Assembly (NCBI RefSeq): GCF_004349065.1
Contig: NZ_SMKZ01000056.1
Span: 1 to 42,395 of the forward strand
From: Jiangella asiatica
Lineage (GTDB): Bacteria > Actinomycetota > Actinomycetes > Jiangellales > Jiangellaceae
Reading direction: 5' to 3'
DNA: 42,395 bases
Part shown: positions 27,091 through 42,068 of the stretch, piece by piece
Layout of the letters: every line of letters starts with the position of its first letter
Position numbering within the stretch: position 1 is the stretch's first letter
Notes under the pieces: model-generated
What the model saw: the letters and a program-made list of their open reading frames with translations, nothing else
Database searches by the model: none
What the model was told of the DNA's origin: nothing
Translations under genes and position numbers: made by a program

Positions 27091-28212
27091 TCAACGCGGT
27101 GCGGGCTCGGCGGGGAGCCAGGTGGTCGACGTCGTCAGGTCGTCGAGGACCTCCGGGATGGGAGTCACGCCGAGGCCGGGACCCGCAGGCACGCGGACGT
27201 GGCCCTCCTCCAGCACGAACGGCTCGGTGAGGTCCTGCGCGAAGTAGCGGTCCGACGCGGACGTGTCGCCGGGCAGCGTGAACCCCGGCAGCGCCGCCAG
27301 CGCGACGTTCGCGGCGCGGCCGATGCCGGACTCCAGCATCCCGCCGCACCAGACCGCGACCCCGTGGGCCCGGGCGAGGTCGTGGATGCGTTTGGCCTCG
27401 AGGTAGCCGCCGACCCGGCCGGGCTTGATGTTGATGACGCGCGCCGCGCCGAGCATCAGGGCGTCGGCGGCGTCCTTGGCCGACTCGATGGACTCGTCGA
27501 GGCAGATCGGCGTGCGGATCAGCTGGGCCAGCGCGGCGTGCTGGCGCAGATCGTCCTCGGCCAACGGCTGCTCGATCAGCAGGAGGCCGAAGTCGTCGAG
27601 GCGGGCCAGCACCTGGGCGTCGGCCAGCGTGTACGCCGCGTTCGCGTCCACCTGCAGCAGCAGGTCGTCGCCGAACCGCGACCGCACCGCGCGTACCGGC
27701 TCGACGTCCCAGCCGGGCTCGATCTTCAGCTTGATGCGCGGGTAGCCCTGGTCGAGGTAGCCGGCGACGGCGTCGAGCAGCTTCGGGATGGTGTCCATGA
27801 TGCCGACGGAGACACCGGCCGGGACGCGGTCTCGCACCGCACCGAGGTGCGCGCCGAACGACTCCCCGCGCGCCCGCAGCCAGGCGTCCAGAACGGCGGC
27901 CTCGAGCGCGGCCTTGGCCATCCGGTGCCCGCGCACCGGTTCGAGCACCGACGCCACCCGGTCCGGCGCCACCGACCCCGCGGCGAACAACCGCGGCGCG
28001 AGGAACCGCGTGATGACGTCGGCGGCGCCGTCGGCGTACTCCGGCGAGTACAGCGGCTCACGCATCGCCACGCACTCGCCCCAGCCGTCGGCGTCGGGCG
28101 TGGCCGCCCGGACCAGCAGCACGTCGCGGGCGGTCTCGACCCCGAACGACGTCCGGAACGGCGCCACCAGGGGCATCGCGACCCGGCGCAGCTCGAACCC
28201 GGTGATCTTCAT
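27091..28212 (-). CDS. N-acyl/N-succinyl-amino-acid racemase (enolase superfamily, MenC-like)
   Basis: This 373-residue enolase-superfamily enzyme belongs to the muconate-lactonizing/o-succinylbenzoate synthase group. The full catalytic set is visible: K161-x-K163 (IKLKIEPG), metal ligands D189 (LQVDANAA), E214 (LIEQPL) and D239 (CLDES), and K263 (INIKPGRVGG). Two-base racemases and OSBS share these residues, so the sequence cannot separate the two reactions. No menaquinone gene is nearby, while an M20 hydrolase and a GNAT gene are coupled upstream, which points to N-succinyl-amino-acid racemase. The ATG overlaps the GNAT stop (ATGA). It is the last gene of the 13-kb operon. Confidence 0.9.
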   Translation of the reverse strand: MKITGFELRRVAMPLVAPFRTSFGVETARDVLLVRAATPDADGWGECVAMREPLYSPEYADGAADVITRFLAPRLFAAGSVAPDRVASVLEPVRGHRMAKAALEAAVLDAWLRARGESFGAHLGAVRDRVPAGVSVGIMDTIPKLLDAVAGYLDQGYPRIKLKIEPGWDVEPVRAVRSRFGDDLLLQVDANAAYTLADAQVLARLDDFGLLLIEQPLAEDDLRQHAALAQLIRTPICLDESIESAKDAADALMLGAARVINIKPGRVGGYLEAKRIHDLARAHGVAVWCGGMLESGIGRAANVALAALPGFTLPGDTSASDRYFAQDLTEPFVLEEGHVRVPAGPGLGVTPIPEVLDDLTTSTTWLPAEPAPR

Positions 28213-29183
28213 CCGTCCGTCCTCTCGACGACGTACGCGCCGGACCCGGTGAAGCCCACCACCTGGGCGCCCGAGCCGAGCATCCCACCCAGCACGTCGC
28301 GCATGGCCAACCGCCACTGCCGGGCCAGCACCGGGTCGGCGCGACGCAGCGCCTCGATGTCGGTGGGCGTGCGCACCAGGCACGACGGTGCCCGCTCCCA
28401 GGCCGCGGCCGGCGCGGCGACCGGCCGGCCCGACGCTGACTCCGTCAGCGCCGCCACGGCACCGGCGGGCTCGTCCGGACCGGACCCGCCGCCGGACGAG
28501 CAGGCCGCCACCACCGCGGGGTCGCCGAGCGCCCACCGCACCAGCAGCCGGTCCGAGCCCTGTCCCTCGTTGATGGCGTCGTCCATGTCGCCGTAGAAGT
28601 CGACGAGGTACTCCTGCGGACGGGCCCGCAGCTTGGCCAGGTTGAAGTACGCGTTGCGGCGGATCAGCGGGTCGAAGGTCCAGGTGACGTCGCGCAGCCC
28701 GCGCTCGAGCGCCCAGGACCGCTGGTGGACCTTGAGGGCGAAGCCGACGTGCCGGCCGCGGGCGGCGGCGGCGACACCGGCGACGTGCGAGTGCAGCGCA
28801 TGCCCGGGCGGCGAGGCGAAGAACCCGACACAGGCCCCGACCAGCTCACCGTCGAGGAAGGCACCCGCGGCGTAGTTGCCGGCGTGGGTCATGGCCCGCA
28901 GGTGCTCGACGGTGACCGGGGGGTTCGACGCGTCCGGCTGCCAGATCCGGTCGAACAGCTCATACACCTGCTCCAGCTCCGCCAGGGCGTCGAGCAGCCG
29001 CACCTGGACCCCGGACCGCCGCGCGGCGAGCTCGGCCGCCCGCGCAGCCTCGTCCGCCCGCGCAGCCTCGTCCGCCGGTGCGAACGCCGGTTCGTGCGAC
29101 ACGGCGAGCTCCCCCTCCGGCACCGGCCTGCCCACATCGTGCACCACAGCTTCGATGCTGCCCCCATCTGGCCGTTTCGTCAT
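28209..29183 (-). CDS. GNAT acyltransferase, COG3375-type
   Basis: This 324-residue GNAT-fold protein has an N-terminal Ala/Asp/Glu-rich helix (a six-residue ADEAAR repeat, encoded by an exact 18-bp tandem repeat at 29041-29076), a core near 60-235, an acyl-CoA loop RGRHVGFAL (about 156-164) and the pattern TWTFDPLIRRNAYFNLAKL (about 183-201) followed by DFYGDMDD. These motifs fit the COG3375 group, whose members lie beside N-succinyl-amino-acid racemases and can succinylate D-amino acids from succinyl-CoA. It overlaps both neighbours by four bases. The last 90 residues are low in complexity and poorly recognisable. The acyl donor is inference from context. Confidence 0.85.
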   Translation of the reverse strand: MTKRPDGGSIEAVVHDVGRPVPEGELAVSHEPAFAPADEAARADEAARAAELAARRSGVQVRLLDALAELEQVYELFDRIWQPDASNPPVTVEHLRAMTHAGNYAAGAFLDGELVGACVGFFASPPGHALHSHVAGVAAAARGRHVGFALKVHQRSWALERGLRDVTWTFDPLIRRNAYFNLAKLRARPQEYLVDFYGDMDDAINEGQGSDRLLVRWALGDPAVVAACSSGGGSGPDEPAGAVAALTESASGRPVAAPAAAWERAPSCLVRTPTDIEALRRADPVLARQWRLAMRDVLGGMLGSGAQVVGFTGSGAYVVERTDG

Positions 29184-30388
29184 GGTCGGGCCGTATCATG
29201 CCGGCTACCCGGTTTCGTCCCAGGCGACCAGCCCGCCGGCTCGGAGGCCACCCATTCCGCCGAGCGGACCGCGGTCACCAGTCCCGCCAGCAGGGCCGCC
29301 CGCCGCGGCATCTCGGCAACCTCGACGTACTCGCCGGGCGCGTGCGCCCCCGCGCCGACCGCGCCCAGCCCGTCGAGGGTCGGCGTCCCGGCGCCGGCCA
29401 CGATGTTCCCGTCCGACGCGCCGCCGACGTGCGCCGACGTGAGCGCGGGCAGCCCCAGCCGCACGGCCACCGACGACGCCAGCGCGAAGAGCCCCGCCGA
29501 TGCCACGGGCTCGAACGGCGGGTGCCGCGGCCCGCGCACCACCTCGACGTGGGCACCCGGCAGCCGCGGCACCAGGTCGGACAGGGCGTCGTCGACCCGA
29601 CGCTGCTCGGCCACGGTGGGCACCCGTGCGTCCACGTGCACCGTCGCCGTCCCGGGCACGGTGTTCGCGGTGGTCCCGGCGATGGCCACGGTGGGGGTGA
29701 CGGTAGCGCCGTCGGGGCCCCGGTCGAGCGCGGCGATCGCCAGCACCTGGTGCGCCAACTCGACCGCCGCGTTGACGCCGTTCCACGGCTCCAGTCCGGC
29801 GTGTGCCGCCCGGCCGCGGACGCGCACCTCGTACCAGGACGCGCCCTTCCGCGCGGTCTTGAGCGCACCGCCGTCGGCCGACGCCTCCAGCACGAAGGCC
29901 GCGTCCGCCCGGGCGGCCTCCTCGAGGATGAGCGGCCGCGACGACGGCGCGCCGAGCTCCTCGTCGCCGGTGACCAGCACGCTCACCCCGTCCAGCGAGT
30001 CCAGCGACGCCAGCGCGTGGAACAGCTGCACCAGCCCGGCCTTCATGTCGAAGCAGCCCGGCCCGTAAGCGCGCCCGTCAGCCACCCGCCACGGGTGCTC
30101 GGCCAGCGAACCCAGCGGCCACACGGTGTCGTGGTGGCCCAGCAGCAGGATGCCCGGCACGGCGCCGGCCGGGCCGAACCGCCAGCGCAGGTGGGTCCGT
30201 CCGTCGACGACGATCCGCTCCGGCGCGACCCCGGTGAGCCGCGCGCCGAGCTCGGCGACGACGTCGGCGCTGGCCGCGACCGCGGCGATGTCCGCCGACG
30301 GCGACTCGCACCGCACCAGCAGCCCGAGGTCGTCGGCCATCTTCTCGGCACCACCGGTCGCCGCGCCCGTCGTTGCGCCGCCGCTCAT
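29180..30388 (-). CDS. M20 metallopeptidase / N-acyl-amino-acid hydrolase (CPG2-like)
   Basis: This 402-residue zinc hydrolase of the M20 family is closest in pattern to carboxypeptidase G2. Metal and catalytic residues are visible in GHHDTV (H85, D87), GCFDMKAG (D114), TGDEELG (E143, E144) and near the end GAHAPGEYVE. A dimerisation (lid) domain sits in the middle. No signal peptide is seen, so it is cytoplasmic. Family members split C-terminal glutamate or N-acyl-amino acids; beside a racemase and a GNAT it best fits an N-succinyl-L-amino-acid hydrolase. The ATG at 30388 overlaps the upstream stop; the longer open frame overlaps the previous gene and is not used. Confidence 0.88.
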   Translation of the reverse strand: MSGGATTGAATGGAEKMADDLGLLVRCESPSADIAAVAASADVVAELGARLTGVAPERIVVDGRTHLRWRFGPAGAVPGILLLGHHDTVWPLGSLAEHPWRVADGRAYGPGCFDMKAGLVQLFHALASLDSLDGVSVLVTGDEELGAPSSRPLILEEAARADAAFVLEASADGGALKTARKGASWYEVRVRGRAAHAGLEPWNGVNAAVELAHQVLAIAALDRGPDGATVTPTVAIAGTTANTVPGTATVHVDARVPTVAEQRRVDDALSDLVPRLPGAHVEVVRGPRHPPFEPVASAGLFALASSVAVRLGLPALTSAHVGGASDGNIVAGAGTPTLDGLGAVGAGAHAPGEYVEVAEMPRRAALLAGLVTAVRSAEWVASEPAGWSPGTKPGSRHDTARP

Positions 30389-31263
30389 CTGGCCGCCCGC
30401 AGGTGGTCGACGGCGATCCGCGCGGCCCGGCCGATGACCGCGTCGGCGGCCGGGTTGCGGAACTCCCGCCCGGGCAGCCGCAGGAACACCGCGACGGCGA
30501 ACCGCGAACCGTCGGGGTACTCCACCACGCCGGCCTCGTTGCGCACGTGCGACAAGGTCCCCGTCTTCGCCGCGATCTTGACGTCGTCCATTGGAAACCC
30601 CGAGGTCAACCGGTGCGGCCACACCTGCAGGGCCATGATGCGGCGGACCTCCGCGGCCGCATCGGGCGCCAGGCCGTCGTCGGTCCAGACCCGCCGCAGC
30701 AGGGCGGTGGTGTCCCGCGCGGTGCTGCGGTTGGTCTGCTCGGCGGTCAGCGCGCGCAGGCCGAGCAGCGACGGCGCCTCGTCCATGGCGTCGATCGAGC
30801 CGCCGAGGTCCTCGGCGATGGTGGAGAACAGGTAGTCGCAGTCCCCCATGACGACGGTGTCGTGCCGGTCCAGCGCCGCGAGGCCGGCGTTGATGCGGTC
30901 GATGCCGAGCAGCCGCACGAGCACGTCGGTGGCGTGGTTGTCGCTGACGCTCATCATCAGGTACGCGAGGTCACGCAGGGACAGCTCGATGTCGTCCAGC
31001 ATGACCGACAACCCGGTGGGTCCGAGCGTCCGCGGCGCCGCCGGCACCCGGACCCGGTCGGTGAGCGACCGTTCCCCGGCGGCGGCCTGCCGGCACAGCT
31101 CCACCAGCACCGGCACCTTGAACACGCTGGCGGTCACGACTGGGGCGTCGGCGTCGAGGCCGGCCTCGGCGCCGCTGTCGATGTCGACGGCGTGCAGGTG
31201 ACCGGTCACGCCCGCGTCGGCGAACGCGCCCTTGACGGCGTCGACCACGTCCGGCCCGACCAC
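30385..31263 (-). CDS. Cytoplasmic class-A beta-lactamase-like serine hydrolase
   Basis: This 292-residue penicillin-recognising-fold protein has all three motif boxes: SVFK (46-49), SDN (107-109) and KTG (233-235). The omega-loop glutamate motif of true class A beta-lactamases is not obvious, and there is no signal peptide, so antibiotic resistance is unlikely. Such intracellular hydrolases act on peptides or esters, often with D-residues. I start at the GTG one nt after the upstream stop; another GTG 30 nt earlier would overlap that gene. Its stop overlaps the M20 gene (ATGA). Its place among D-amino-acid genes suggests a D-peptidase, which is inference. Confidence 0.82.
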   Translation of the reverse strand: MVGPDVVDAVKGAFADAGVTGHLHAVDIDSGAEAGLDADAPVVTASVFKVPVLVELCRQAAAGERSLTDRVRVPAAPRTLGPTGLSVMLDDIELSLRDLAYLMMSVSDNHATDVLVRLLGIDRINAGLAALDRHDTVVMGDCDYLFSTIAEDLGGSIDAMDEAPSLLGLRALTAEQTNRSTARDTTALLRRVWTDDGLAPDAAAEVRRIMALQVWPHRLTSGFPMDDVKIAAKTGTLSHVRNEAGVVEYPDGSRFAVAVFLRLPGREFRNPAADAVIGRAARIAVDHLRAAR

Positions 31264-31264
31264 C

Positions 31265-32635
31265 TCAGCCGACCTTCGGGGTGGCCCGCACACCCAGGTG
31301 CACGTACGGCGAGCCGTCGGCCAGCGTGTAGAAGGTCACTGGGGTCCAGGTCTCGTTGCCGGGCAGGCGCATGGCGTAGATGTCGTCGCGCACCGGGAAC
31401 AGCTCCAACTCCTTCGGCTCCTGGTCCAGGCCGGCGACATCCTGCGTGCTGGTGATCCGGAGCCGGCCGCGGTCGCCGTCCTGCCAGACGTCGATGCGCA
31501 CGCCGGTGCGTTCGTACGTGCCGGCGTGCCGTGCGACGTCGGCGCCGGACTCCGACGCCGGGCTCAGCGGCACCGTCATCTCGATGCCGGCGACCTCGCG
31601 GAAGATCTCCCGGATCAGGGTCTCGTAGAGGTCGCGGGTGTGCCCGCCGTTGGTCAGCAGCGTCACCGCGAGGTCCTGCTCGGGCAGGATGCGCAGGAAC
31701 GCCGACTGCCCGATGGTGTTGCCGTCGTGCCCGAACAGCCTGGTGCCGTTCCAGTCCAGCCGGAACCAGCCCAGGCCCCAGGAGTCTGCCAGCGTGTACG
31801 GGTCGGGCAGCCGTACCTGTTCCTCCCGCATCGCCGCCGCCGTCTCCGCGGCGAGCACCCGAGTGCCGTCGGCGGCGACGCCTCCGGCCAGGTGCATCCG
31901 CGCGAAGGCGAGCACGTCACCGACGGTGGACGCGATGAGCCCGGCCGGTCCGGCCGACCGGGGCAACACCCAGACCGGGGCCCGGCGCGGCTCCTCGTCA
32001 CCCTCGTGGACGTGGCCGACGGCGGTCCGGTGCAGCAGAGCGTCGTCGGGCAGGGTGACGGTGCGCGTCAGGCCCAGCGGTGCGAACAGCTGGTCGCGCA
32101 TGGCGGCGTCCCAGGTCTGGCCGCTGAGCTTCTCGATCACCCGGCCGGCCAGGGTGAATCCGGCGTTGCAGTACGACCAGGTGGCACCGAGCGGGTGGTT
32201 CGGCGGCAACCCGGCCAGCGCCGCGACATAGCGCTCCAGGCACTCGTCGCCGCGGCCGGTGTCGAGGAAGAAGTCGCCGTCGATGCCGCTGGTGTGCGTC
32301 AGCAGGTGCCGCATGGTGACCCGAGCGGTCAGTTCGGCGTCGGCCAGCGACAGCTCGGGCAGGTAGTTCACCACCGGTTCGTCGAGATCGAGCTTGCCGG
32401 CGTCGACCAGCGCCATCACCACCGTCGCGGTCCACACCTTGGTGATCGAGCCGGTCTGGAACAGGGTGTCCGGGGTCACCTCGACCCCGATGTCGACGTT
32501 GGTCAGCCCGTGCGCCAGCTCCACGCTCCGGTCGCCGGCGGCGATCCCGAGGGTCGCGCCAGGGACGTTGTACCGGGCGGCCAGCTCGGCCAGCCGCCGC
32601 TGCCAGTGCTCCGCGTCCAGGGTGGTGGGTGCCAT
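31265..32635 (-). CDS. S12-type serine hydrolase (D-aminopeptidase/beta-lactamase class C-like), possible separate gene
   Basis: This is the C-terminal 456 residues of the fused frame, listed as an alternative gene. The catalytic boxes are SITK (63-66), Y-C-N (155-157) and H-D-G (303-305), as in the class C beta-lactamase, D-aminopeptidase and esterase group of family S12. A C-terminal beta-barrel-like lipocalin domain follows (about 355-456), as in D-aminopeptidase-type enzymes. AGGAGG lies five nt before its ATG, and TGATG at that ATG contains a stop in the +1 frame, just as at the permease junction in this operon. This suggests the enzyme was, or still is, an independent translation product. 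Its substrate stereochemistry is inference. Confidence 0.45.
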   Translation of the reverse strand: MAPTTLDAEHWQRRLAELAARYNVPGATLGIAAGDRSVELAHGLTNVDIGVEVTPDTLFQTGSITKVWTATVVMALVDAGKLDLDEPVVNYLPELSLADAELTARVTMRHLLTHTSGIDGDFFLDTGRGDECLERYVAALAGLPPNHPLGATWSYCNAGFTLAGRVIEKLSGQTWDAAMRDQLFAPLGLTRTVTLPDDALLHRTAVGHVHEGDEEPRRAPVWVLPRSAGPAGLIASTVGDVLAFARMHLAGGVAADGTRVLAAETAAAMREEQVRLPDPYTLADSWGLGWFRLDWNGTRLFGHDGNTIGQSAFLRILPEQDLAVTLLTNGGHTRDLYETLIREIFREVAGIEMTVPLSPASESGADVARHAGTYERTGVRIDVWQDGDRGRLRITSTQDVAGLDQEPKELELFPVRDDIYAMRLPGNETWTPVTFYTLADGSPYVHLGVRATPKVG

Positions 32636-34642
32636 CAGGGCCTCCTTCGTGGTGGGTCGCGCGGCCGTCGTGCGGTGCGCGGGCGTCGTGTGGCGGGTCA
32701 GCCAGTCGACGATCCGGCGGGAGTAGTCCAGCCGGTGCGAGGGACGCCCCTGCAGGATGAACAGGTGCGACGCCTCGGGGTAGAACACGAGCCGCGCCGG
32801 CACGCCGCGGGCGCGCAGAGCGCCGAACCACTGCTCGGCCTGTCCGGGCGGGCAACGGTCGTCGGCCAGGCCGTGCAGGATCAGCGTCGGGGTGGTCACG
32901 GCGGCGACCCGCTCGAACGGCGACTGCGCCGCGGTCGGCTCGCGGTCCTCGTAGGGCAGCCCGATCTCCATCCCGACCAGCAGGTGGCCGACGTCGGAGG
33001 TGCCGGCCATGCTGGCGGTGTCGGAGACGATGCCACCGGCCACGGCGGCGGCGAAACGGTCGGTACGGGCGGTGAGCCAACAGGTCAGGTAGCCGCCGTA
33101 GCTGTAGCCGGACACCGCCAGCCGGGCCGGGTCCGCGACGCCCTCGGCCACCAGTTGGTCCACCGGCTCGAGGAAGTCGCGCTCGTCGGCCAGGCCCCAG
33201 GCGCCGACCGCCGCGGTGTAGAACGCCGAGCCGTAGCCGTCGCTGCCCCGCGGGTTGAGCAGCAGCACCGACCACCCCCGCTCGACCAGCAGCTGGTGGT
33301 AGGCGTGACCGGAGTCGGGCACCGGGCTCCACGCGTTGTGCGGGCCACCGTGCACGTCGACCAGCAGCGGCCCGGGCGCCGTCGCCGTCGCCGGGTTCCG
33401 CAGCAGCCAGGCGTGCACCTGCGTCCCGTCGACGACGGTGAAGACCCGCTCCTCGGCGACCGGTAGCTCGACGCCCTCGGGCGCGTAACGGGTCAGCCGC
33501 GTCTCCCGCCCGGTGGCGAGGTCGACGACGGCGAGGTCGCCGTAGGACGCGGGATCGGCGACGACGACGGCGGCGCGGCCTTCGCGGATGGCGACGGACA
33601 GCCCGGACACGACCCGCGTCGCGCCGGTCACCAGTGGCCGGACCGGCCCGCCGGAGAGGTCGACGGCGAAGACGTGCGTGCAGCCGCGGTCACGAGCGCA
33701 GAACACCACGGTGCTCCCGTCCGCGGCCACCTGGGGCAGCCCGCCGGGATAGCCAGGGCCACCGGGCATGACGGTGCGGTCCAGCTCCGCGATGAGGTCG
33801 ACCACCGGCCCGCCGTCCAGCGGGACGCGCAGCAGCCGGTTCGGGCCGACGCTCACCTCCTCCCGGCCCGCCACCAGCAGCGAGGCGCCGTCCGGCGTCC
33901 AGGTGACCGTCCCGGCCAGCCGCACCGCGGCGCCGACCTCGCGCGGCGTGCCCCCTCCGGCGGCGTCGACGACGTGGACGGTGGACTCGCCGGTCAGGTC
34001 GGCGTCCGGCGCGGTGGCCGCGCTGAAGGCGAGCCGGGTGCCGTCCGGCGACCACGCCGGACCGCCAGCGTGCCAATCGCCGCCGGTGAGCCGCGTGGTG
34101 GTGCCGGCGTCGAGGTCGACGACGTGGACGTGCTGGCGGATGCCGCGCAGCAGGCCCGCGCCGTCGGCCTTGAAGCCGGTCCGGTCGATGACGATCGGCG
34201 CGGTGGAACGGCGGCTTCGGGCGGCATCGTCCTCGCCCGGGAGCGCCAGCGTGTCGACCGGCGCGGTGAACGCGATCCGTCCGCTGTCAGGGCTCCACAC
34301 CGGCGCGCCGGCGCCGGCGGGGAGGTCGGTGACCCGCTCCGGCTCGCCGCCGGCCAGCGGCAGCACCCACAGCTGCACTGGGCCGCCGTCGGCGCGCAGG
34401 AACGCGAGGCGAGTGCCGTCGGGCGACCACGCCGGTGCGCTGTCGTGGTGACCGTTCGTGAGCCGCCGCGGCGGCGCGTCCGTGGCCTCCACGGTGACCA
34501 GCCACAGCGCCGAGCGGTTCTCGTCGGCGGCGGCGTCGCAGGTGCGCAGCGTGTACGCGACGCGCGTGCCGTCTGGTGACAGGGCCGGCTCGGCGGGGAC
34601 CCGCAGGTCCAGGACGTCGGCTTCGACGAGCGGTCGGGTCAT
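31265..34642 (-). CDS. S9 prolyl-oligopeptidase-type peptidase fused to S12-type serine hydrolase
   Basis: One uninterrupted frame of 1125 codons encodes two enzymes. Residues 1-650 are an S9 dipeptidyl-peptidase-like protein: a TolB/WD40-like beta-propeller (repeats with WSPDGTRLAF at about 72-81, 196-206 and elsewhere) and an alpha/beta hydrolase with S514 (GYSYGG), D595 (LADDRCP) and H626 (EASHLF). A low-complexity Thr/Ala/Arg linker (about 651-668) leads to an S12 hydrolase from M670. A consensus ribosome binding site sits in the linker, so the halves may also be made separately. No signal peptide is present, so the product is cytoplasmic and would act on imported peptides. The ATG at 34642 overlaps the upstream ATPase stop (ATGA). 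A lost stop or an indel, real or from sequencing, could explain the fusion. Confidence 0.72.
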   Translation of the reverse strand: MTRPLVEADVLDLRVPAEPALSPDGTRVAYTLRTCDAAADENRSALWLVTVEATDAPPRRLTNGHHDSAPAWSPDGTRLAFLRADGGPVQLWVLPLAGGEPERVTDLPAGAGAPVWSPDSGRIAFTAPVDTLALPGEDDAARSRRSTAPIVIDRTGFKADGAGLLRGIRQHVHVVDLDAGTTTRLTGGDWHAGGPAWSPDGTRLAFSAATAPDADLTGESTVHVVDAAGGGTPREVGAAVRLAGTVTWTPDGASLLVAGREEVSVGPNRLLRVPLDGGPVVDLIAELDRTVMPGGPGYPGGLPQVAADGSTVVFCARDRGCTHVFAVDLSGGPVRPLVTGATRVVSGLSVAIREGRAAVVVADPASYGDLAVVDLATGRETRLTRYAPEGVELPVAEERVFTVVDGTQVHAWLLRNPATATAPGPLLVDVHGGPHNAWSPVPDSGHAYHQLLVERGWSVLLLNPRGSDGYGSAFYTAAVGAWGLADERDFLEPVDQLVAEGVADPARLAVSGYSYGGYLTCWLTARTDRFAAAVAGGIVSDTASMAGTSDVGHLLVGMEIGLPYEDREPTAAQSPFERVAAVTTPTLILHGLADDRCPPGQAEQWFGALRARGVPARLVFYPEASHLFILQGRPSHRLDYSRRIVDWLTRHTTPAHRTTAARPTTKEALMAPTTLDAEHWQRRLAELAARYNVPGATLGIAAGDRSVELAHGLTNVDIGVEVTPDTLFQTGSITKVWTATVVMALVDAGKLDLDEPVVNYLPELSLADAELTARVTMRHLLTHTSGIDGDFFLDTGRGDECLERYVAALAGLPPNHPLGATWSYCNAGFTLAGRVIEKLSGQTWDAAMRDQLFAPLGLTRTVTLPDDALLHRTAVGHVHEGDEEPRRAPVWVLPRSAGPAGLIASTVGDVLAFARMHLAGGVAADGTRVLAAETAAAMREEQVRLPDPYTLADSWGLGWFRLDWNGTRLFGHDGNTIGQSAFLRILPEQDLAVTLLTNGGHTRDLYETLIREIFREVAGIEMTVPLSPASESGADVARHAGTYERTGVRIDVWQDGDRGRLRITSTQDVAGLDQEPKELELFPVRDDIYAMRLPGNETWTPVTFYTLADGSPYVHLGVRATPKVG
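32641..32646 (-). promoter_or_regulatory. Internal consensus Shine-Dalgarno inside the S9-S12 frame
   Basis: AGGAGG (minus strand, within AAGGAGG) lies five nt before the in-frame ATG at 32635. It is the strongest ribosome binding site in this operon, yet it lies within an open frame. It could drive internal initiation or be a relic of two formerly separate genes. Confidence 0.7.
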
Positions 34643-35622: not shown

Positions 35623-37625
35623 GCCCGGCTCACCCCTTCCTCGTGCGGCTGTCGGCCGTGCGGCTCCTGGCCGTGCGGCTCCTGGCCGTGCTGCTTCTGG
35701 TCGTCCAGGCGCGGGTGCCAGCAGGCCGCGCGCTGGTCCGGCGCCACCGTGGCCAGCCGCGGGTCGGCCCGGCAGACGTCGTCGGCGAAGGAGCACCGCG
35801 GCGCGAACGCGCAGCCGGCCGGGCGCGACGCCGGGTCCGGCGGGCGGCCCGGCACGGTCGCCAGCGGCAGCTCCCGGTCGGTGGTCAGGTCCGGGACCGA
35901 GCCGAGCAGCGCCCGCGTGTACGGGTGCGCGGCCCGGTCCAGCCGGTCGGCCGGCAGCTCCTCGACCACCCGGCCCGCGTACATGACGACGATGCGTTGG
36001 CACAGCTGCGCCACGACCGCGATGTCGTGCGAGATGAGCACGACGGCCGCGCCGGTCTCGCGCTGCACCTCGCGCAACAGCCGCAGCACCTGCCGCTGGA
36101 CGGTGACGTCCAGGGCCGTGGTCGGCTCGTCGGCGATGATCAGCTCCGGCTCGCTCATCAGGCCCATCGCGACCATGGCGCGCTGGCGCATGCCGCCGGA
36201 GTACTCGTGCGGGTACTGGTGGGCGCGACGCTGCGGCGCCGGTACCCGGACGGTGCGCAGCCGGTCGATCGCCCGGGCCAGCGCCGCCCGCCGGCCCTGG
36301 CCCTCGTGCACTCGGGCGACCTCGGCCAGCTGCCATCCCACCCGCATCGACGGGTTGAACGAGGTCATCGGGTCCTGGAACACCATGGCCAGCCGGGTGC
36401 CGAGGTGCTTGCGGACCGCGGGGTCGTCACGCGGGGGTTCGTCGCCGAGCGCGTCCCCGTCCCCGCCGGCGAGCGAGAGACCGACGACGTCCAGCCGGTC
36501 GGCGGTGACGACGGCCCGCTCCGGTGCGAGCCGGGCGAGGCTGAGCGCGGTCAGGCTCTTGCCGGAGCCGGATTCGCCCACGATCCCGACGGTCTCGCCG
36601 CGCCGGACGGTGAGGTCGACGCCGTCGACGGGGTACGTCCAGCCGTCCGGCCCGGCGCCGGGGAAGCCGACGCGCAGCCCTTCGACGGCGAGGACGGCGT
36701 CCGGTGCGGGCTCGGTCGGGGCCGGCGCGGTCGCGGTCGACGCGCCGTCCGCGGGGTCCGCCGGCGGTGTCGCCGACCTGCGCGGCAGGATGCGGCGCGT
36801 CGTGCGGATGCCGACCACCTGCGCGATCGCCTCGCCGAGCAGCGTGAACGCCAGCCCGGCGATCACCACCGCAACACCTGGGGCCAGCGCCGCGGACGGG
36901 TTGATATAGATGCGGTCCAGGCCCTCACCCAGCAGCCGGCCCCAGTCGTAGGCTGGCGGCTGCACGCCCAGGCCGAGGAAGGACAGCCCGGCGAACGCCA
37001 GCAGCGCTCCGCCGGCCAGCACGGTCGCGTTGACCACCAGCGGCTCGCCGACGTTCGGCAGCAGGTGCCGCACGATGAGCCGGAACCGGCCGACCCCGGC
37101 CACCCGCGCGGCCGCCACGAAGTCGCGTCCGGACACCGCGGCCACGTTCGTCTGCACCAGCCGGGCGAATGACGGCGCACCGGCCAGGCCGATCGCCAGC
37201 ACCGCTCCCCGCGCGCCGACGCCGAAGATCACCGCGAAGAACAGCGCCAGCAGCAGCGCCGGGAACGCGACCGCGAGGTTCACCGCCGCGACCACCAGCC
37301 GGCCGGAGCGACGTCCCAGCACCGCCGGTAGCACGCCCAGGATCACGCCGGCGACCACGCAGATCGCCGTGGCCAGCAGCGCCAGGCCGAGCGAGTACCG
37401 CGTCGCCACCAGGACCCGGAACATGATGTCGCGGCCCAGTGCGTCGGTGCCGAGAGGGTGGTCGGAGGTCGAGCCCTGTGACAGCGCGGCCGGGTCGGTC
37501 GCCTCCGCGGCGTCGCCCCACAGGATCGGCGCGACGATCGCCAGGATCGCCAGCAGGACCAGCAGGCCCGCCGCCACGGCGCCGACGGGGTTACGCAGCG
37601 CCGCCCGCCACTGTGCCCGCCCCAT
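35619..37625 (-). CDS. Peptide ABC transporter permease-ATPase fusion (DppC-DppD type)
   Basis: This 668-residue subunit joins a DppC-like permease (1-285, about six membrane segments, EAA-like loop near 169-191) to a DppD-like ATPase (about 310-640). The ATPase has Walker A GESGSGKS (350-357), the signature YSGGMRQRAMVAMGL, Walker B LIIADEPTTALDV and a cysteine pattern near the end. Such permease-ATPase fusions are known in actinomycetes. Its C-terminus is a charged His/Gln/Pro repeat (GQEPH units) not usual in the family. It starts at the TGATG junction with the upstream permease. It provides one transmembrane and one nucleotide-binding half of the importer. Confidence 0.92.
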   Translation of the reverse strand: MGRAQWRAALRNPVGAVAAGLLVLLAILAIVAPILWGDAAEATDPAALSQGSTSDHPLGTDALGRDIMFRVLVATRYSLGLALLATAICVVAGVILGVLPAVLGRRSGRLVVAAVNLAVAFPALLLALFFAVIFGVGARGAVLAIGLAGAPSFARLVQTNVAAVSGRDFVAAARVAGVGRFRLIVRHLLPNVGEPLVVNATVLAGGALLAFAGLSFLGLGVQPPAYDWGRLLGEGLDRIYINPSAALAPGVAVVIAGLAFTLLGEAIAQVVGIRTTRRILPRRSATPPADPADGASTATAPAPTEPAPDAVLAVEGLRVGFPGAGPDGWTYPVDGVDLTVRRGETVGIVGESGSGKSLTALSLARLAPERAVVTADRLDVVGLSLAGGDGDALGDEPPRDDPAVRKHLGTRLAMVFQDPMTSFNPSMRVGWQLAEVARVHEGQGRRAALARAIDRLRTVRVPAPQRRAHQYPHEYSGGMRQRAMVAMGLMSEPELIIADEPTTALDVTVQRQVLRLLREVQRETGAAVVLISHDIAVVAQLCQRIVVMYAGRVVEELPADRLDRAAHPYTRALLGSVPDLTTDRELPLATVPGRPPDPASRPAGCAFAPRCSFADDVCRADPRLATVAPDQRAACWHPRLDDQKQHGQEPHGQEPHGRQPHEEGVSRA
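35642..35698 (-). repeat. 15-bp tandem repeat coding a His-rich tail
   Basis: A 15-bp unit (ggccgtgcggctcct on the plus strand) occurs twice exactly (35654-35668, 35669-35683), with degenerate copies on both sides. It encodes GQEPH repeats near the C-terminus of the permease-ATPase fusion. The tail has four histidines spaced about every five residues, which could bind a metal or be neutral repeat expansion. Confidence 0.85.
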
Positions 37626-38644
37626 CAGCCCTCCCTGATCGTCGAGCGCGGGTCGGCGATCGCCAGCAGCACGTCGACGACGAGGTTGACCAGCAGCACC
37701 GCGGCGCCGTAGACGAGCACGATGCCCTGCACGACGGGGTAGTCCTTGGCCAGGATCGAGGAGACGATCGTCATCCCCATGCCGGGCCAGGCGAACACGT
37801 TCTCGACCAGGACCGTGCCGACGATCATGCCGCTGAGCAGCAGCCCGCCGATGGTCAGCGTCGAGGTCAGCGCGTTCGGGAAGACGTGGCGCAGGTAGAC
37901 GCGCAGCGGCGGCAGCCGTTTGGCCCGGGCGGTGCGGACGAAGTCCTCATCCATCACCGCGAGCGCTTCGACCCGGACGATGCGGGCCATCAGCAGCGCC
38001 GGCCCGAGCGCCAGCGCCAGCACTGGCAGCACGTACGAGGCCGCGCCCTCGCGACCGGCGACCGGGAACCAGCCGAGCGTCACGCCGAACACGAACACCA
38101 GGCCGACGGCCAGCAGGAACTCCGGGATCGCCGCGACCACCGCGCTGGTGGACGTGAAGCCGAGCTCGACACCGCGCCGGCGCCCGCCCCGGGTGAGGAC
38201 GGCCATCGCCAGGCCGAGCGGGATGGCGGCGAGCATGACGACGACGAACGCCACCACCGCCAGGCCGGCGGTCGCCGGCAGCCGCTGCCCGATCGTCTCC
38301 GACACCGACACCCCGGAGGTCATCGAGACGCCTAGGTCACCGCTGAACAGCGCCCGCAGGTAGTCCACGAACTGCACGGCGAGCGGGTCGTTCAGCCCGA
38401 GCGCCTCGCGCCGCGCCTCGACCAGGTCCGGCGGGGCGGTGACGCCGAGCGCCGCCCGCACCGGGTCCCCGGGGATCAGGTGGATCATCAGGAACGCCAG
38501 CGTCACCAGCACGGCCAGCGACGCGAGCAGCCGCCCGGCCCGGCGCAGCAGGAACCGGGCCCACGGGTTGCCGACCCACCCTGCCACGGCCGAGGGGGCC
38601 GACGCCGCCGGGGCGGCGGGCGGGGTGACGGGCGTACTCGTCAC
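37625..38644 (-). CDS. Peptide ABC transporter permease (DppB/OppB-like)
   Basis: This 339-residue permease has a Pro/Ala-rich N-terminal tail (1-30), a first membrane segment near 38-58 followed by the DppB-type extracellular region (HLIPGDPVRAALGV, 57-70), and further segments to about 330. The EAA loop for ATPase contact lies around FVRTARAKRLPPLRVYLRHV. It pairs with the permease half of the next gene. The GTG start overlaps the binding-protein stop (GTGA), and its stop shares one base with the next start (TGATG). The family carries di- and oligopeptides, nickel or other solutes; the peptidase genes downstream favour peptides. Confidence 0.92.
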   Translation of the reverse strand: MTSTPVTPPAAPAASAPSAVAGWVGNPWARFLLRRAGRLLASLAVLVTLAFLMIHLIPGDPVRAALGVTAPPDLVEARREALGLNDPLAVQFVDYLRALFSGDLGVSMTSGVSVSETIGQRLPATAGLAVVAFVVVMLAAIPLGLAMAVLTRGGRRRGVELGFTSTSAVVAAIPEFLLAVGLVFVFGVTLGWFPVAGREGAASYVLPVLALALGPALLMARIVRVEALAVMDEDFVRTARAKRLPPLRVYLRHVFPNALTSTLTIGGLLLSGMIVGTVLVENVFAWPGMGMTIVSSILAKDYPVVQGIVLVYGAAVLLVNLVVDVLLAIADPRSTIREG

Positions 38645-40242
38645 GAGGCCGTCAGGCGAATCGTCGCCGGGACCGGTCCGTCACCGCCGGGTTCCACGGT
38701 GGCGCCGTCGAGGAAGGTCGGGATGGTCTCGTCGGCGAAGAGCACCACGTCGTTCGCGGCGAACAGCGCCTCCTCGGCCTCCTGCCACTTCGCGCAGCCC
38801 TCCTGGCCCGGCAGCGTCATCGCCTCGGCGACGGCGGCGGCGTACTCCGGGTTGTCGATCGAGGCGAGGTTGACCCCGCCCTCGGCCGGCGCCGGACCGG
38901 AGAGGAACGGCACCACCTGGTTGGGCAGCCGCAGGTTCACCGGCAGCAGCGCCGCGCCCCACGCCCCGGTGCCGAAGACCACCTCGTTGTACTCCGTCGG
39001 CGGCATCCCGCGAGTGGTGGCGGCGACACCGAGGTCGGACCACGTCGACGCGATCAGCTCGGCCGCCGCGGCAGTGGTGTCGCCCCGCGTGCTGTTGTAG
39101 ATCAGCTCGAGCTCCAGCGGTGCGCCGTCCTTGGTGCGCACGCCGTCCGAGCCCGCCGTCCAGCCGGCCGCGTCGAGCGCGGCGGCGGCCGCCTCGGTGT
39201 CCTGCTCCGGCAGGTTGCCGTCGACGGCGTCGTAGCGGCACGCCACCGGGTCGATGACGGCGAGCGCCTCGGACCGCTGCCCGTAGCCGCCGGTGATCAC
39301 CGACATGAGCTCCTCGTAGTTCAGCGCCTGAGCGAGCGCGGCGCGGACCGCGTCGTCGGCGCCGGGATTGCCCGCGGCCTGGTTGAAGAACAGCTCGCCG
39401 ACGATCGCCCGCAGCGTGACCTGCTCGTACGTCCCCTCCAGCCGCTGCCGGTCCGGCCCGACCACCGAGGCCGAGTTCAGCTCGCCCGAGAGCAGCAGGT
39501 TCGCCGACGTCGACTCGTTCGCGATGACGCGGATGTTGACCGTCGCCGGCGTGCCGGGGTCGGCGGCCGCTCTCCCGTCGGGCCCCCACGCGTAGTCGTC
39601 GCGGCGCTGGAACGTGTAGTGGTCGTCGCGGACCATCTCCGTCAGCTCGAACATCCCCGTGCCGATCCCGGTCTCTTCCAGCAGCGTCGGGTCGTCCAGG
39701 CCGGCTTGGCAGGCGATGAAGAGATCGCCGGTGCTCTCCAGCAGGAACGGGTCCGGCGTCGGCACCGTGATGGTGACCGTGCGGGCGGCGTCGTCGGCGG
39801 TCGCGGTCAGCTCGGCCGGGACCAGCACGCCGCGCACCGGCGACACGTTCGCGTCGTCGACCACGAACTGGAAGTTCGCCGCCACGACGCTCGCCGTCAG
39901 CGGCGTGCCGTCGGAACAGGTGATGCCGTCGCGCAGGGTGTAGGTGACGGAGTCGGCCGTGGCCTCCCACGACTCCGCCAGCCACGGCAGCGCCTCGCCC
40001 TCGACGGTGAAGTAGACGAGCTTGTCGTACATGTAGGCGTCGACGGCGCGCGTGGCCGCCAGCACCGTCAGGTGCGGGTGCAGGTTGCCCGGATCGGCGG
40101 CGACGGCGGTGGTGAAGGTCCCGTCGACAACGGGTTCGCCGCCTTCGTCGGTGCCGGCCCCGTTGCCGCCGCCGTCACCGCCGCAAGCCGCGAGGAGCAC
40201 CGTCAGGGCGGCGGCGAGTGCGACGTTAGGACCGATGCGCAT
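38641..40242 (-). CDS. Peptide ABC transporter solute-binding lipoprotein (family 5)
   Basis: This is the extracellular binding protein of the importer, 533 residues. A signal peptide ends in LLAAC with the lipid-attached cysteine at residue 20; a Gly/Asp linker follows, then a family 5 (DppA/OppA) binding domain with the LPWLAESWEATAD segment near the start and FQRRDDYAWG in the middle. The start is the ATG at 40242, with AAGGAG six nt upstream; a TTG six nt earlier has no room for a site. It is the first gene of the 13-kb operon. The ligand cannot be read from sequence; the downstream hydrolases imply peptides or N-acyl-amino acids. Confidence 0.93.
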   Translation of the reverse strand: MRIGPNVALAAALTVLLAACGGDGGGNGAGTDEGGEPVVDGTFTTAVAADPGNLHPHLTVLAATRAVDAYMYDKLVYFTVEGEALPWLAESWEATADSVTYTLRDGITCSDGTPLTASVVAANFQFVVDDANVSPVRGVLVPAELTATADDAARTVTITVPTPDPFLLESTGDLFIACQAGLDDPTLLEETGIGTGMFELTEMVRDDHYTFQRRDDYAWGPDGRAAADPGTPATVNIRVIANESTSANLLLSGELNSASVVGPDRQRLEGTYEQVTLRAIVGELFFNQAAGNPGADDAVRAALAQALNYEELMSVITGGYGQRSEALAVIDPVACRYDAVDGNLPEQDTEAAAAALDAAGWTAGSDGVRTKDGAPLELELIYNSTRGDTTAAAAELIASTWSDLGVAATTRGMPPTEYNEVVFGTGAWGAALLPVNLRLPNQVVPFLSGPAPAEGGVNLASIDNPEYAAAVAEAMTLPGQEGCAKWQEAEEALFAANDVVLFADETIPTFLDGATVEPGGDGPVPATIRLTAS

Positions 40243-40269
40243 GGCCAACTCCTTCGCGAGCAGGTGTTC

Positions 40270-40463: not shown

Positions 40464-40490
40464 ACGCCGAGCCGGCGATCGGCAGCCGGG

Positions 40491-42068
40491 TCAGGCCCGC
40501 AGGACGCGACCGGCCCGCTCGCCGGTGAAGACCCCGTCGTCGACGACGACCCGGCCATCGAGCAGGACCGTGCGGATGCCCTCGGTGGGCACGTCGGGCT
40601 CGACGTAGGAGCCGCCGTGGCCGATGGTGGCCGGGTCGAAGACGGTGACGTCGGCGTGGGCACCGGGCAGCAGCACGCCCCGACCGGCCAGCCCGAACTG
40701 CCGGGCGATCAGCGACGACGCCTTGCGGATCGCCTCCGGCCACGTCAGCACCTGTTCCTCGCGGACGTATGTGCCGAACAGCCGGGGGAAGCAGCCGTAC
40801 GTGCGCGGGTGCTGCATGCCGATCGGCGGGCCGTTGTCCGAGCCGATGCCGACGAGCGGGCTGGCCATGATGGCGCGCACGTCCGGTTCGGCCATCATCT
40901 CCAGGACGATCATGGCGCCGGGATCGGCGATGAGCAGCTCGCACAGGGTGTCGAACGGATCGGCGTCACCCGCTGAGCCGGCCGCCTCGGCGACGGTGCG
41001 GCCCACGACGGACGCGTCGCGGTGCGTAGTGACCAGGATCTTCGACGGCTCGGTGTTGGCCCACATGCCGTCGGCCGGACGGCCCAATGCCGCCTGGGTC
41101 CGCAGCCGCTCCCGCTCGGCCGGGTCGCCGAGCCGGGCGACCATGGCATGGGCGCCACCGGCGACGGCGTCGTTGGGCAGCAGCGCCAGCATCACCGTCC
41201 CGCCGGCGAGGTACGGGTACTGGTCGCCCATGACGTCCACGCCCGCCAGCCGCGCCTGTTCGAGCCGCTCCAGCAGCGCGGCACCCTTGCCGTGTGCGGC
41301 CTTCCCGGCGGCCTTGCAGTGCGAGATCTGCAACCGGATGCCGCCGGCCCGGGCGATCGCCACGGCCTCGTCGATGGCGTCCTCGACGAAGCGTCCCTCG
41401 TCGCGCATGTGGGTGGCGTAGGTGCGGCCGTAGGCGCCGGCGACGCGGGCGATCCGCATCACCTCGGCCTGGTCGGCGAAGCATCCGGGCGGGTAGATCA
41501 GGCCGGTCGAGAAACCGACGGCGCCGGCCTCGAACGCCTCCGCGGCCAGCCGGCACATCTCGTCGACCGCGCCCGGACGCAGCTCGTCGCCGGCCCCGTT
41601 GGCGGTCACCCGCAACGTGTGGTGGCCGACCAGGTACGCCAGGTGGTTGGTTGGCCCACTCTTCTCGACCTGATCGAGGAACTCGGCGAATGACCCGGCG
41701 CCGACGTCGACACCGCAGGCCAGCTCGGCGTACATGGCGCGGACGACGGCCGCGGACTCGTCGGTGAGCGGCGCGAAGCTGAACCCGCAGTTGCCGGCGA
41801 TCTCGGTGGTGACGCCCTGCAGCAGCTTGAAGGGTTGTGGCTGGTCCATCAGCGGGACCATGTCGCTGTGCGAATGGGCGTCGACGAAGCCCGGAGCGAC
41901 GTAAAGGCCGTCGCAGTCGATGACGCGGACACCAGTGGGGCGGTGTGAGCCGGCAGGCTCGATCGCGCGGACCGCACCGTTCTCGACGACGACGTCAGCG
42001 ACCGTGCCGGGGGAGCCGAGCCCGTCGAACACCGTGCCGCCGCTCAAGACCAGGGGTTCAGGAGTCAC
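40491..42068 (-). CDS. N-acyl-D-amino-acid deacylase (D-aminoacylase family amidohydrolase)
   Basis: This 525-residue zinc amidohydrolase has H65-x-H67 (DAHSHSDM), a cysteine in AGNCGFSFAP (C94) typical of D-aminoacylases, further histidines in ATHMRDEG and ISHCK, and the catalytic aspartate in GIGSDNGPP. The length suits the N-acyl-D-amino-acid/D-glutamate deacylase group, which frees D-amino acids from N-acyl forms. Related enzymes act on N-acyl-D-peptides. The start is uncertain: the GTG at 42068 begins the family homology but has no clear ribosome binding site. It lies on the same strand as the peptide operon, 248 bp upstream of it, with a repeat and a promoter candidate between, so it may be a separate transcript with a related role. 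Confidence 0.88.
   Translation of the reverse strand: MTPEPLVLSGGTVFDGLGSPGTVADVVVENGAVRAIEPAGSHRPTGVRVIDCDGLYVAPGFVDAHSHSDMVPLMDQPQPFKLLQGVTTEIAGNCGFSFAPLTDESAAVVRAMYAELACGVDVGAGSFAEFLDQVEKSGPTNHLAYLVGHHTLRVTANGAGDELRPGAVDEMCRLAAEAFEAGAVGFSTGLIYPPGCFADQAEVMRIARVAGAYGRTYATHMRDEGRFVEDAIDEAVAIARAGGIRLQISHCKAAGKAAHGKGAALLERLEQARLAGVDVMGDQYPYLAGGTVMLALLPNDAVAGGAHAMVARLGDPAERERLRTQAALGRPADGMWANTEPSKILVTTHRDASVVGRTVAEAAGSAGDADPFDTLCELLIADPGAMIVLEMMAEPDVRAIMASPLVGIGSDNGPPIGMQHPRTYGCFPRLFGTYVREEQVLTWPEAIRKASSLIARQFGLAGRGVLLPGAHADVTVFDPATIGHGGSYVEPDVPTEGIRTVLLDGRVVVDDGVFTGERAGRVLRA

What the first reader, a model, noticed from the sequence alone, without database searches (positions are those of the whole stretch)
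27091..42068. Candidate D-peptide import and D-to-L amino-acid conversion locus
Sequence shows one same-strand block: N-acyl-D-amino-acid deacylase, then an operon of peptide importer, S9 peptidase, two penicillin-fold serine hydrolases (S12 type and class-A type, neither with a signal peptide), M20 hydrolase, GNAT and amino-acid racemase. Known biology: S12 enzymes include D-aminopeptidases, D-aminoacylases free D-amino acids, and the M20-GNAT-racemase trio converts D- to L-amino acids. Inference: imported peptides rich in D-residues (cell-wall fragments or non-ribosomal peptides) are cut in the cytoplasm and their D-residues converted to L forms. I know of no described system joining all these parts in one operon.
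Basis: partly seen in the sequence, partly recalled or inferred. Interest (0 to 1): 0.85.

Follow-up and report, generated by a model that had tools for sequence, protein, structure and literature searches.

The report
Actinomycete D-peptide uptake and salvage operon
A conserved gene cluster in soil actinomycetes probably imports peptides that contain mirror-image (D) amino acids, cuts them up with an unusual fused double protease, and turns the D-amino acids into usable L-forms; the parts are known one by one, but I found no description of this combination.

Summary
On the minus strand, nine tightly packed ORFs (gaps -4 to +1 nt) encode a family-5 peptide-type importer, peptidases, an M20 hydrolase, a GNAT and an N-acylamino-acid racemase. 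(1) The S9 and S12 'genes' are one uninterrupted ORF, a fused S9-S12 protein. (2) The D-aminoacylase lies 248 nt upstream, outside the tight block; it keeps that place in 6 of 6 Jiangella relatives examined, but not in 5 Microbacterium genomes.

The grouping is not accidental. In 393 genomes of the window's class, 26 of 26 full-length S9-S12 fusions lie within 10 kb of the GNAT, and 25 of 26 within 10 kb of the racemase (the 26th contig ends there). The racemase matches a solved N-acylamino-acid racemase end to end and keeps its catalytic residues; a separate MenC elsewhere frees it from menaquinone synthesis.

Most likely: import of D-residue-containing peptides, cytoplasmic cleavage, and succinylation-racemisation-desuccinylation of D- to L-amino acids. 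D-specificity of the S12 and class-A-like enzymes is inferred, not shown. Precedents: the GNAT-racemase-M20 pathway (Sakai 2006) and the archaeal Pab87 locus (S12 D-peptidase, D-aminoacylase, dipeptide importer). A new variant of a known kind.

The parts
40491..42068 (-). N-acyl-D-amino-acid deacylase (D-aminoacylase family); accessory, 248 nt upstream of the operon
   Evidence: Amidohydro_3; solved D-aminoacylase 1M7J 269 bits, with C94, H220, H250 and D411 lined up (metal-ligand roles recalled). Directly upstream of the binding protein in 6 of 6 Jiangella relatives examined
38641..40242 (-). family-5 solute-binding lipoprotein of an ABC importer
   Evidence: SBP_bac_5 174.6 bits; lipobox at residue 17
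37625..38644 (-). ABC permease (OppB/DppB type)
   Evidence: BPD_transp_1 115.5 bits; overlaps the binding-protein gene by 4 nt
35619..37625 (-). ABC permease (OppC type) fused to a first ATPase, 668 aa
   Evidence: BPD_transp_1 + ABC_tran + oligo_HPY in one ORF
34639..35622 (-). second ABC ATPase
   Evidence: ABC_tran 110.9, oligo_HPY 54.7 bits; GTG start at 35622
31265..34642 (-). S9-S12 fusion protein (1125 aa): prolyl-oligopeptidase-family domain, then a penicillin-fold S12 domain; no stop between them
   Evidence: One ORF; Peptidase_S9 + Beta-lactamase; 26 full-length hits in 393 genomes, none with a stop inside; S12 motifs SITK, YCN, HDG and S9 motif GYSYGG
32633..32648 (-). in-frame AAGGAGG and ATG at the S9-S12 junction: possible internal start giving an extra S12-only product
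   Evidence: Sequence; an SD-like stretch plus ATG is also present in 6 of 6 Jiangella copies, while 6 of 6 Microbacterium-type copies show no in-frame ATG at the junction
30385..31263 (-). class-A-beta-lactamase-like serine hydrolase without signal peptide; accessory
   Evidence: Beta-lactamase2 185.5 bits; SVFK, SDN, KTG present
29180..30388 (-). M20 metallohydrolase, putative N-acyl(succinyl)-L-amino-acid hydrolase
   Evidence: Peptidase_M20 81.7 bits; closest solved relative carboxypeptidase G2, 129.9 bits
28209..29183 (-). GNAT-family acyltransferase, putative D-amino-acid N-succinyltransferase
   Evidence: Acetyltransf_6/_1 just over cut-off; no solved relative at E<=1e-3; within 10 kb of 102 of 138 racemase places in the class sample
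27091..28212 (-). N-acylamino-acid / N-succinylamino-acid racemase (NSAR/OSBS family)
   Evidence: 566 bits over residues 1-366 to solved N-acylamino acid racemase 1SJA; K163, D189, E214, D239, K263 and R266 kept (roles recalled)
25282..27012 (-). PucR/AdeR/CdaR-type regulator, probable regulator of the locus
   Evidence: HTH_30 74.7 bits; PucR match in 19 of 23 fusion-bearing loci, the other 4 being short of flank beyond the racemase

Best explanation
This is a D-peptide (heterochiral-peptide) uptake and salvage operon. (1) The lipoprotein and ABC importer bring short peptides into the cell [inferred from family]. (2) The cytoplasmic S9-S12 fusion cuts them: the S9 domain acts on L-type or acylated termini and the S12 domain, helped by the class-A-like hydrolase, on bonds next to D-residues [inferred from family; stereospecificity not shown]. 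(3) The D-aminoacylase, where present, frees D-amino acids that arrive N-acylated [inferred]. (4) The GNAT N-succinylates the D-amino acid, the racemase inverts it, and the M20 enzyme removes succinate from the L-form, giving an irreversible D-to-L conversion as in the pathway of Sakai et al. 2006 [racemase strongly supported by sequence; GNAT and M20 roles inferred from linkage and family]. (5) A PucR-type regulator probably controls the locus.
For: Racemase: end-to-end 566-bit match to a solved N-acylamino-acid racemase; catalytic residues and R266 kept in 39 of 39 aligned sequences, window included; a separate actinobacterial MenC (435.9 bits, cut-off 288) in the same genome. Linkage in 393 genomes of the class: GNAT within 10 kb of 26 of 26 full-length fusions, racemase within 10 kb of 25 of 26, the exception cut by a contig end; 5 of 5 strong hits to the S9 part alone are also within 10 kb of a racemase gene. 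The same components persist in rearranged or unfused form (L161, L162, L163, L169; L065, L066, L068). Importer permeases and ATPases lie beside the fusion in 22 of 23 relatives. D-aminoacylase adjoins the binding-protein gene in 6 of 6 Jiangella and the GNAT-M20-racemase genes in one Euzebyaceae MAG. Below an esterase-type top hit, the S12 domain's solved relatives include PBP cyclase Ulm16, 2QMI (Pab87, identity recalled), alkaline D-peptidase, D-Ala-D-Ala carboxypeptidase 1CEF and ClbP; Pab87 is D-peptide specific (PMC2651629, passages).
Against: No stereospecificity can be read from the sequence. The best solved relative of the S12 domain is 'IS11' (220 bits; an esterase, as I recall), ahead of the D-specific enzymes. 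The binding protein resembles nickel/metallophore binding proteins at least as much as peptide ones. Only 25 of 138 racemase places have a fusion within 10 kb, and 60 racemase loci from a phylum-wide sample held the binding protein in 0 and the OppB-type permease in 0, so D-to-L conversion mostly serves other contexts. The GNAT has only weak family matches and no solved relative. One fusion locus (L066) has no adjacent importer and no M20. 5 of 8 strong hits to the S12 part alone have no racemase on their contig.
Confidence: 0.66

Rival explanations
1. Cell-wall salvage in the narrow sense: the imported peptides are muropeptide stem peptides (L-Ala-D-Glu-DAP-D-Ala) released by the cell itself or by neighbours.
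For: Stem peptides are a common source of D-residues; class-A-like and S12 folds are those of DD-peptidases; the Pab87 authors propose this source for their archaeal S12 locus (PMC2651629, passages).
Against: No family match to an LD-carboxypeptidase or NlpC/P60 endopeptidase was found in the operon's proteins. The racemase scores far below the cut-offs of the L-Ala-D/L-Glu epimerase models (62.5 against 500, 60 against 343), and the described GNAT of this pathway was reported with D-Phe, D-Tyr and D-Trp (PMC8762209, passages), not wall residues.
Confidence: 0.2
2. Detoxification or consumption of D-residue antibiotics (non-ribosomal peptides, lipopeptides) made by competing soil bacteria.
For: S12 relatives include enzymes that handle non-ribosomal peptides (Ulm16, ClbP); D-aminoacylase and S9 acyl-peptide-hydrolase relatives fit N-acylated peptides.
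Against: Known D-stereospecific resistance peptidases are exported or membrane-bound (recalled); here the hydrolases lack signals and the pathway ends in usable L-amino acids, which points to nutrition.
Confidence: 0.2
3. An ordinary peptide importer and L-peptidases that share an operon with a general D-amino-acid recycling trio; the S12 and class-A-like proteins are esterases or L-peptidases.
For: In 60 racemase loci from the phylum sample the GNAT is present in 56 but S12 only in 5, S9 in 3 and the binding protein in 0; closest S12 structure IS11; S9 enzymes act on L-peptides (family knowledge).
Against: The full-length fusion was not found away from the GNAT (26 of 26) and was found with the racemase in 25 of 26, so its substrate probably yields D-amino acids.
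Confidence: 0.13
4. The racemase is really o-succinylbenzoate synthase for menaquinone, as the NCBIfam name menC_lowGC_arch (TIGR01928, over its cut-off) would have it.
For: 305.5 bits against a cut-off of 200.65.
Against: A MenC of the actinobacterial type lies elsewhere in the genome; the closest solved protein is named N-acylamino acid racemase, though that enzyme is known to do both reactions (chain names).
Confidence: 0.02

Closest known systems
N-succinylamino-acid racemase pathway (GNAT + NSAR + M20) of Sakai et al. 2006, Geobacillus kaustophilus (organism and M20 assignment recalled; paper not held, seen as cited in PMC8762209)
   Same: GNAT, enolase-superfamily racemase and M20 hydrolase encoded together; racemase of the same NSAR/OSBS family
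   Different: Here joined to a peptide importer, an S9-S12 protease and a regulator, and in some lineages a D-aminoacylase and class-A-like hydrolase
Pyrococcus abyssi Pab87 (CubicO) locus, PMC2651629 (passages read)
   Same: S12 D-peptide-cleaving enzyme, D-aminoacylase and dipeptide ABC importer encoded close together; proposed use of environmental D-peptides
   Different: No GNAT-NSAR-M20 trio or S9 domain named in the passages; an aminotransferase instead; archaeal
Bacillus subtilis dppABCDE (D-aminopeptidase DppA with a dipeptide importer; operon make-up recalled)
   Same: A D-aminopeptidase encoded with a peptide importer
   Different: DppA is a different, self-compartmentalising enzyme, and no D-to-L conversion genes are in the operon (recalled)
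Bacillus subtilis ykf genes for muropeptide use (YkfB epimerase; PMC5808125 passages)
   Same: An enolase-superfamily stereo-inverting enzyme encoded beside a peptidase
   Different: YkfB epimerises the dipeptide L-Ala-D-Glu itself; here free D-amino acids would be acylated first
N-acylamino-acid racemase 1SJA / 4A6G (from Amycolatopsis, organism recalled)
   Same: End-to-end match, 566 bits, same catalytic residues
   Different: Biochemistry known, but I know of no described operon context

Membership tests
NSAR/OSBS (N-succinylamino-acid racemase) | Two catalytic lysines (KxK and K263) and metal ligands D189, E214, D239 | tested here: met
   KLK, LQVDAN, EQP, the D of CLDE[ST] and K263 in 39 of 39 aligned sequences, window included
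NSAR/OSBS (N-succinylamino-acid racemase) | R266, tied to racemase specificity by Truong 2021 (title seen in a reference list) | tested here: met
   NIKPGR 22, NVKPGR 12, NIKAGR 4, NVKPAR 1: R266 in 39 of 39
NSAR/OSBS (N-succinylamino-acid racemase) | Racemase rather than OSBS activity in vivo | tested here: inconclusive
   Separate MenC present and D-amino-acid gene context; activity itself not assayed
GNAT-NSAR-M20 D-to-L pathway | GNAT, racemase and M20 encoded together | tested here: met
   Consecutive, overlapping genes in the window; all three in 21 of 23 fusion-bearing relatives (L066 lacks M20, L006 is cut before the racemase)
GNAT-NSAR-M20 D-to-L pathway | GNAT acylates D-amino acids with succinyl-CoA | not testable with these tools
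   Only weak GNAT matches, no solved relative at E<=1e-3
S12 D-peptidases (Pab87, DAP, R61 type) | Active-site motifs SxxK, YxN, HxG | tested here: met
   37 of 37 aligned S12 sequences, window included, have S..K, Y.N and H.G; the set includes paralogues outside the fusion
S12 D-peptidases (Pab87, DAP, R61 type) | Cleavage next to D-residues | not testable with these tools
   Needs assay; similarity alone is ambiguous
D-aminoacylase | Metal-site Cys, His, His, Asp as in 1M7J (ligands recalled) | tested here: met
   C94, H220, H250 and D411 line up with 1M7J in the printed alignment
Class A beta-lactamase | SxxK, SDN, KTG | tested here: met
   All three in the window; in 12 aligned sequences SxxK 12, SDN 11 (one row gapped), KTG 12
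Class A beta-lactamase | Omega-loop E166-x-x-x-N170 for deacylation (recalled), and export | tested here: not met
   No such motif found by eye between SDN and KTG and no signal-like N-terminus; below the NCBIfam class A cut-off (83.9 against 200). Not filed as a beta-lactamase
Pab87/CubicO locus | S12 enzyme + D-aminoacylase + dipeptide-type importer close together | tested here: met
   All three gene types present in the window; this is resemblance of loci only
Pab87/CubicO locus | CubicO-specific sequence motifs and octamer | not tested
   Motifs are given in PMC2651629 but were not looked for; oligomer not testable here

The most novel reading that the evidence does not exclude
Actinomycetes carry a widespread, dedicated heterochiral-peptide salvage system whose core is one polypeptide holding two unrelated serine proteases of opposite handedness preference: an S9 domain for L-bonds and an S12 domain for D-bonds. 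Peptides of mixed chirality are degraded within one enzyme and handed to a GNAT-racemase-M20 pathway that turns every D-residue into an L-amino acid.
Probability: 0.4. Interest if true: 0.8.

Novelty: new variant of a known kind. Interest (0 to 1): 0.6.

Why it matters
D-amino-acid peptides (cell-wall debris, non-ribosomal peptides) resist ordinary proteases, and how soil bacteria recycle them is poorly mapped. This locus gives a complete, testable route from uptake to L-amino acids. It also gives a physiological context for N-acylamino-acid racemases, best known to me as industrial catalysts, and a function to test for a widespread S9-S12 fusion for which I found no functional description (2006 proteins at E<=1e-30, among 7992 scored candidates, matched a query region spanning both domains; every one of the 120 listed carries both Pfam domains).

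Tried and rejected
MenC/menaquinone reading: rejected, a separate MenC exists. Class A beta-lactamase as such: rejected on cut-off, missing omega-loop motif and missing signal. S9-S12 continuity as a sequencing or assembly error: rejected, because the frame is open in 12 of 12 loci checked by script, in L066 and in 26 of 26 full-length genome hits. Lasso-peptide isopeptidase: a 141.6-bit hit to NF033523, far below its 400 cut-off, rejected. Operator hunting: a palindrome lies before PucR (27048-27071; 0.04 expected), but I saw no matching one in L001, L002 or L005, so no regulatory claim is made. The promoter scan found 0 promoter-like and 1 terminator-like site, no more than the shuffles give.

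Literature: ten searches. Judging by titles and abstract starts of the papers listed (one search listed 20 of 24, 12 of 28, the others listed all they found), none describes the combined operon or a characterised S9-S12 fusion. The library holds only open-licence papers, so absence there is weak evidence.

Limits of the counts: the 26 fusion genomes include 18 of one family (Jiangellaceae by kinship to L001-L006); the other 8 come from three families. The 23 inspected fusion loci are L001-L006, L008-L013, L066, L154-L160 and L165-L167; they partly overlap the 26 genomes (for example L001 lies in the genome called G443), so the two counts are not independent. Binding-protein matches were found in 18 of these 23 (not L009, L010, L012, L066, L154); L154's importer is only distantly similar. 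L007 was left out because its contig starts inside the S12 part. The 60 survey loci are 60 of the 75 places listed: the window itself and 14 low-ranked others were not fetched. Control stretches were placed by hand, not by a random generator. S12 sequences include paralogues outside the fusion, and the D-aminoacylase set there (4 rows) contains distant homologues, so it was not used. Racemase, GNAT and class-A-like searches scored only the best 5 or 6 first-look candidates per genome, the fusion search only 2.

Full report
WHAT IS THERE. The block at 25282-42068 lies on the minus strand. In order of reading: D-aminoacylase (40491-42068), a 248-nt gap, then binding lipoprotein (38641-40242), permease (37625-38644), permease-ATPase fusion (35619-37625), ATPase (34639-35622), S9-S12 fusion (31265-34642), class-A-like hydrolase (30385-31263), M20 (29180-30388), GNAT (28209-29183), racemase (27091-28212), a 78-nt gap, and a PucR-type regulator (25282-27012). 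Gaps among the nine ORFs from the lipoprotein to the racemase are -4 to +1 nt, which argues for one transcript. The window lies in a 7.0-Mb genome that the genome search places in the same genus as G443; G443 appears to be the genome of L001, Jiangella ureilytica, because contig coordinates agree.

No stop codon separates S9 from S12. The same holds for 12 of 12 relatives checked by script, for L066 and for all 26 full-length genome hits. In 6 of 6 Jiangella copies the junction keeps a Shine-Dalgarno-like stretch and an ATG, so an additional S12-only product is possible; 6 of 6 Microbacterium-type copies have no in-frame ATG there, so they probably make only the fusion, although a GTG start cannot be excluded in some. 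A database search with residues 380-1120 (S9 catalytic half plus S12) found 2006 proteins at E<=1e-30 among 7992 scored candidates; each of the 120 listed carries PF00326 and PF00144, as the query region favours, and named ones come from Jiangella, Phytoactinopolyspora, Streptomyces, Amycolatopsis, Micromonospora and others. The fusion is therefore widespread; I found no functional description of it.

LINKAGE. In a sample of 393 genomes of the class, a full-length fusion occurs in 26, the racemase (E<=1e-60) in 116 with 138 places, and the GNAT (E<=1e-25) in 111 with 129 places. All 26 fusions have the GNAT within 10 kb and 25 have the racemase within 10 kb; the remaining one (G472) lies on a contig that ends inside the GNAT (compare L006). 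Of the strong hits to the S9 part alone 5 of 5 lie within 10 kb of a racemase gene; of those to the S12 part alone 2 of 8 within 10 kb and 3 of 8 within 15 kb. Conversely the racemase has a fusion within 10 kb in only 25 of 138 places, and the GNAT within 10 kb in 102 of 138. In a phylum-wide sample, 60 racemase loci held the GNAT in 56, M20 in 9, S12 in 5, PucR in 4, S9 in 3, the class-A-like gene in 1, and the binding protein, the OppB-type permease and the D-aminoacylase in 0. So GNAT plus racemase is the common unit, and the peptide module is an addition in some lineages. The class-A-like enzyme (E<=1e-35) lies within 15 kb of the racemase in 17 of 77 places.

REARRANGED COPIES. One search shows the same parts in other orders: L161 has S9 and S12 apart, the importer inverted and a second S12; L162 has S9 and S12 side by side in different frames, with the importer behind them and GNAT-racemase reversed; L163 lacks S9; L169 has importer, class-A-like gene, PucR, GNAT and racemase with S12 matches. 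In one search, L065 (S12, GNAT, racemase, PucR, M20), L066 (fusion, S12, GNAT, racemase, PucR) and L068 (S12, class-A-like, GNAT, racemase, PucR) differ again. L016, a Euzebyaceae MAG, has class-A-like, D-aminoacylase, GNAT, M20 and racemase in a row. Persistence of the set through shuffling is better evidence of a shared task than one conserved order. Results the other way: L014 keeps M20-GNAT-racemase-PucR without the fusion, L066 lacks an adjacent importer and M20, and the class-A-like gene is missing from one of the six Jiangella loci (L001) and from all six Microbacterium-type loci.

THE RACEMASE. It matches the solved N-acylamino acid racemase 1SJA over residues 1-366 with 566 bits; a review table lists N-acetylmethionine racemisation by the Amycolatopsis TS-1-60 enzyme and N-succinyl-phenylglycine racemisation by others of the family (PMC8142540, passages; that 1SJA is the Amycolatopsis enzyme is recalled). 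Catalytic and metal-binding residues and R266 are kept in 39 of 39 aligned sequences. TIGR01928 would name it o-succinylbenzoate synthase, but the genome has its own actinobacterial-type MenC.

MECHANISM, SHOWN AND INFERRED. Shown by sequence: gene content, fusion, catalytic motifs, lack of signal-like N-termini, linkage. Strongly supported: racemase function. Inferred: uptake of peptides (the binding protein is family 5, with nickel-type and peptide-type relatives); D-cleavage by S12 (its solved relatives include several D-specific enzymes, but the top one, IS11, is an esterase as far as I recall); succinylation by the GNAT (a GNAT making N-acetyl- and N-succinyl-D-Phe, -Tyr and -Trp is described by Sakai 2006 as cited in PMC8762209, passages); desuccinylation by the M20 enzyme (closest solved relative carboxypeptidase G2); release of N-acyl groups by the D-aminoacylase. 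One tension is left open: a cytoplasmic D-aminoacylase that accepted N-succinyl-D-amino acids would undo the GNAT step, so its specificity should differ (inference).

COMPARISON. The trio is the Sakai pathway. The Pab87 paper (PMC2651629, passages) describes a D-peptide-specific S12 enzyme beside a D-aminoacylase and a dipeptide importer and proposes use of environmental D-peptides. The present locus works like these two combined and adds the S9 domain. It is therefore a new variant of a known kind, not a new kind.

VERDICT. Real, conserved, and more interesting for the fused protease and its close linkage to D-to-L conversion genes than for the list of parts. Interest 0.6.

Noticed in passing
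window 35619-37625: OppC-type permease and an oligopeptide ATPase are one 668-aa ORF; alignments cover residues 1-639 in one piece in 6 of 6 Jiangella loci, while L154 matches in two pieces.
   Followed up: partly
G000:C94:264-1316 (L018, L082): The same genome has a second, 48%-identical racemase with a GNAT-like fragment and an M20 match nearby; a second copy of 48-51% identity occurs in 12 of 12 genomes of the genus in the sample, this one included.
   Followed up: no
window 27048-27071: Palindrome CCGTTCGT-N8-ACGAACGG between racemase and PucR genes; 0.04 expected by chance; no matching one seen in three relatives; possible operator.
   Followed up: partly
window 40413-40462: Two and a half direct repeats of about 20 nt (CATCACnAGGGCnTCCCGCG) upstream of the binding-protein gene, read by eye.
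   Followed up: no
L155-L158, L160, L161, L163, L165: A second, 41-45% identical S12 gene sits upstream of the binding-protein gene in several families, where Jiangella instead has the D-aminoacylase.
   Followed up: no
window 27091-28212: NCBIfam TIGR01928 (menC_lowGC_arch) passes its cut-off for this racemase, so automatic annotation probably calls it o-succinylbenzoate synthase.
   Followed up: yes
window 94-25500: The rest of the window looks ordinary: FtsK-like ATPase, BTAD regulator, T2SS/Flp-type E and F proteins, SAF domain, Mur-ligase-like protein, valyl-tRNA-synthetase-like protein and IMP dehydrogenase.
   Followed up: no
P0002 and P0121 (305-kb contig): An 87% identical fusion region and an 80% identical GNAT come from contigs of the same length labelled Streptosporangiaceae MAG, closer to Jiangella than the label suggests.
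   Followed up: no
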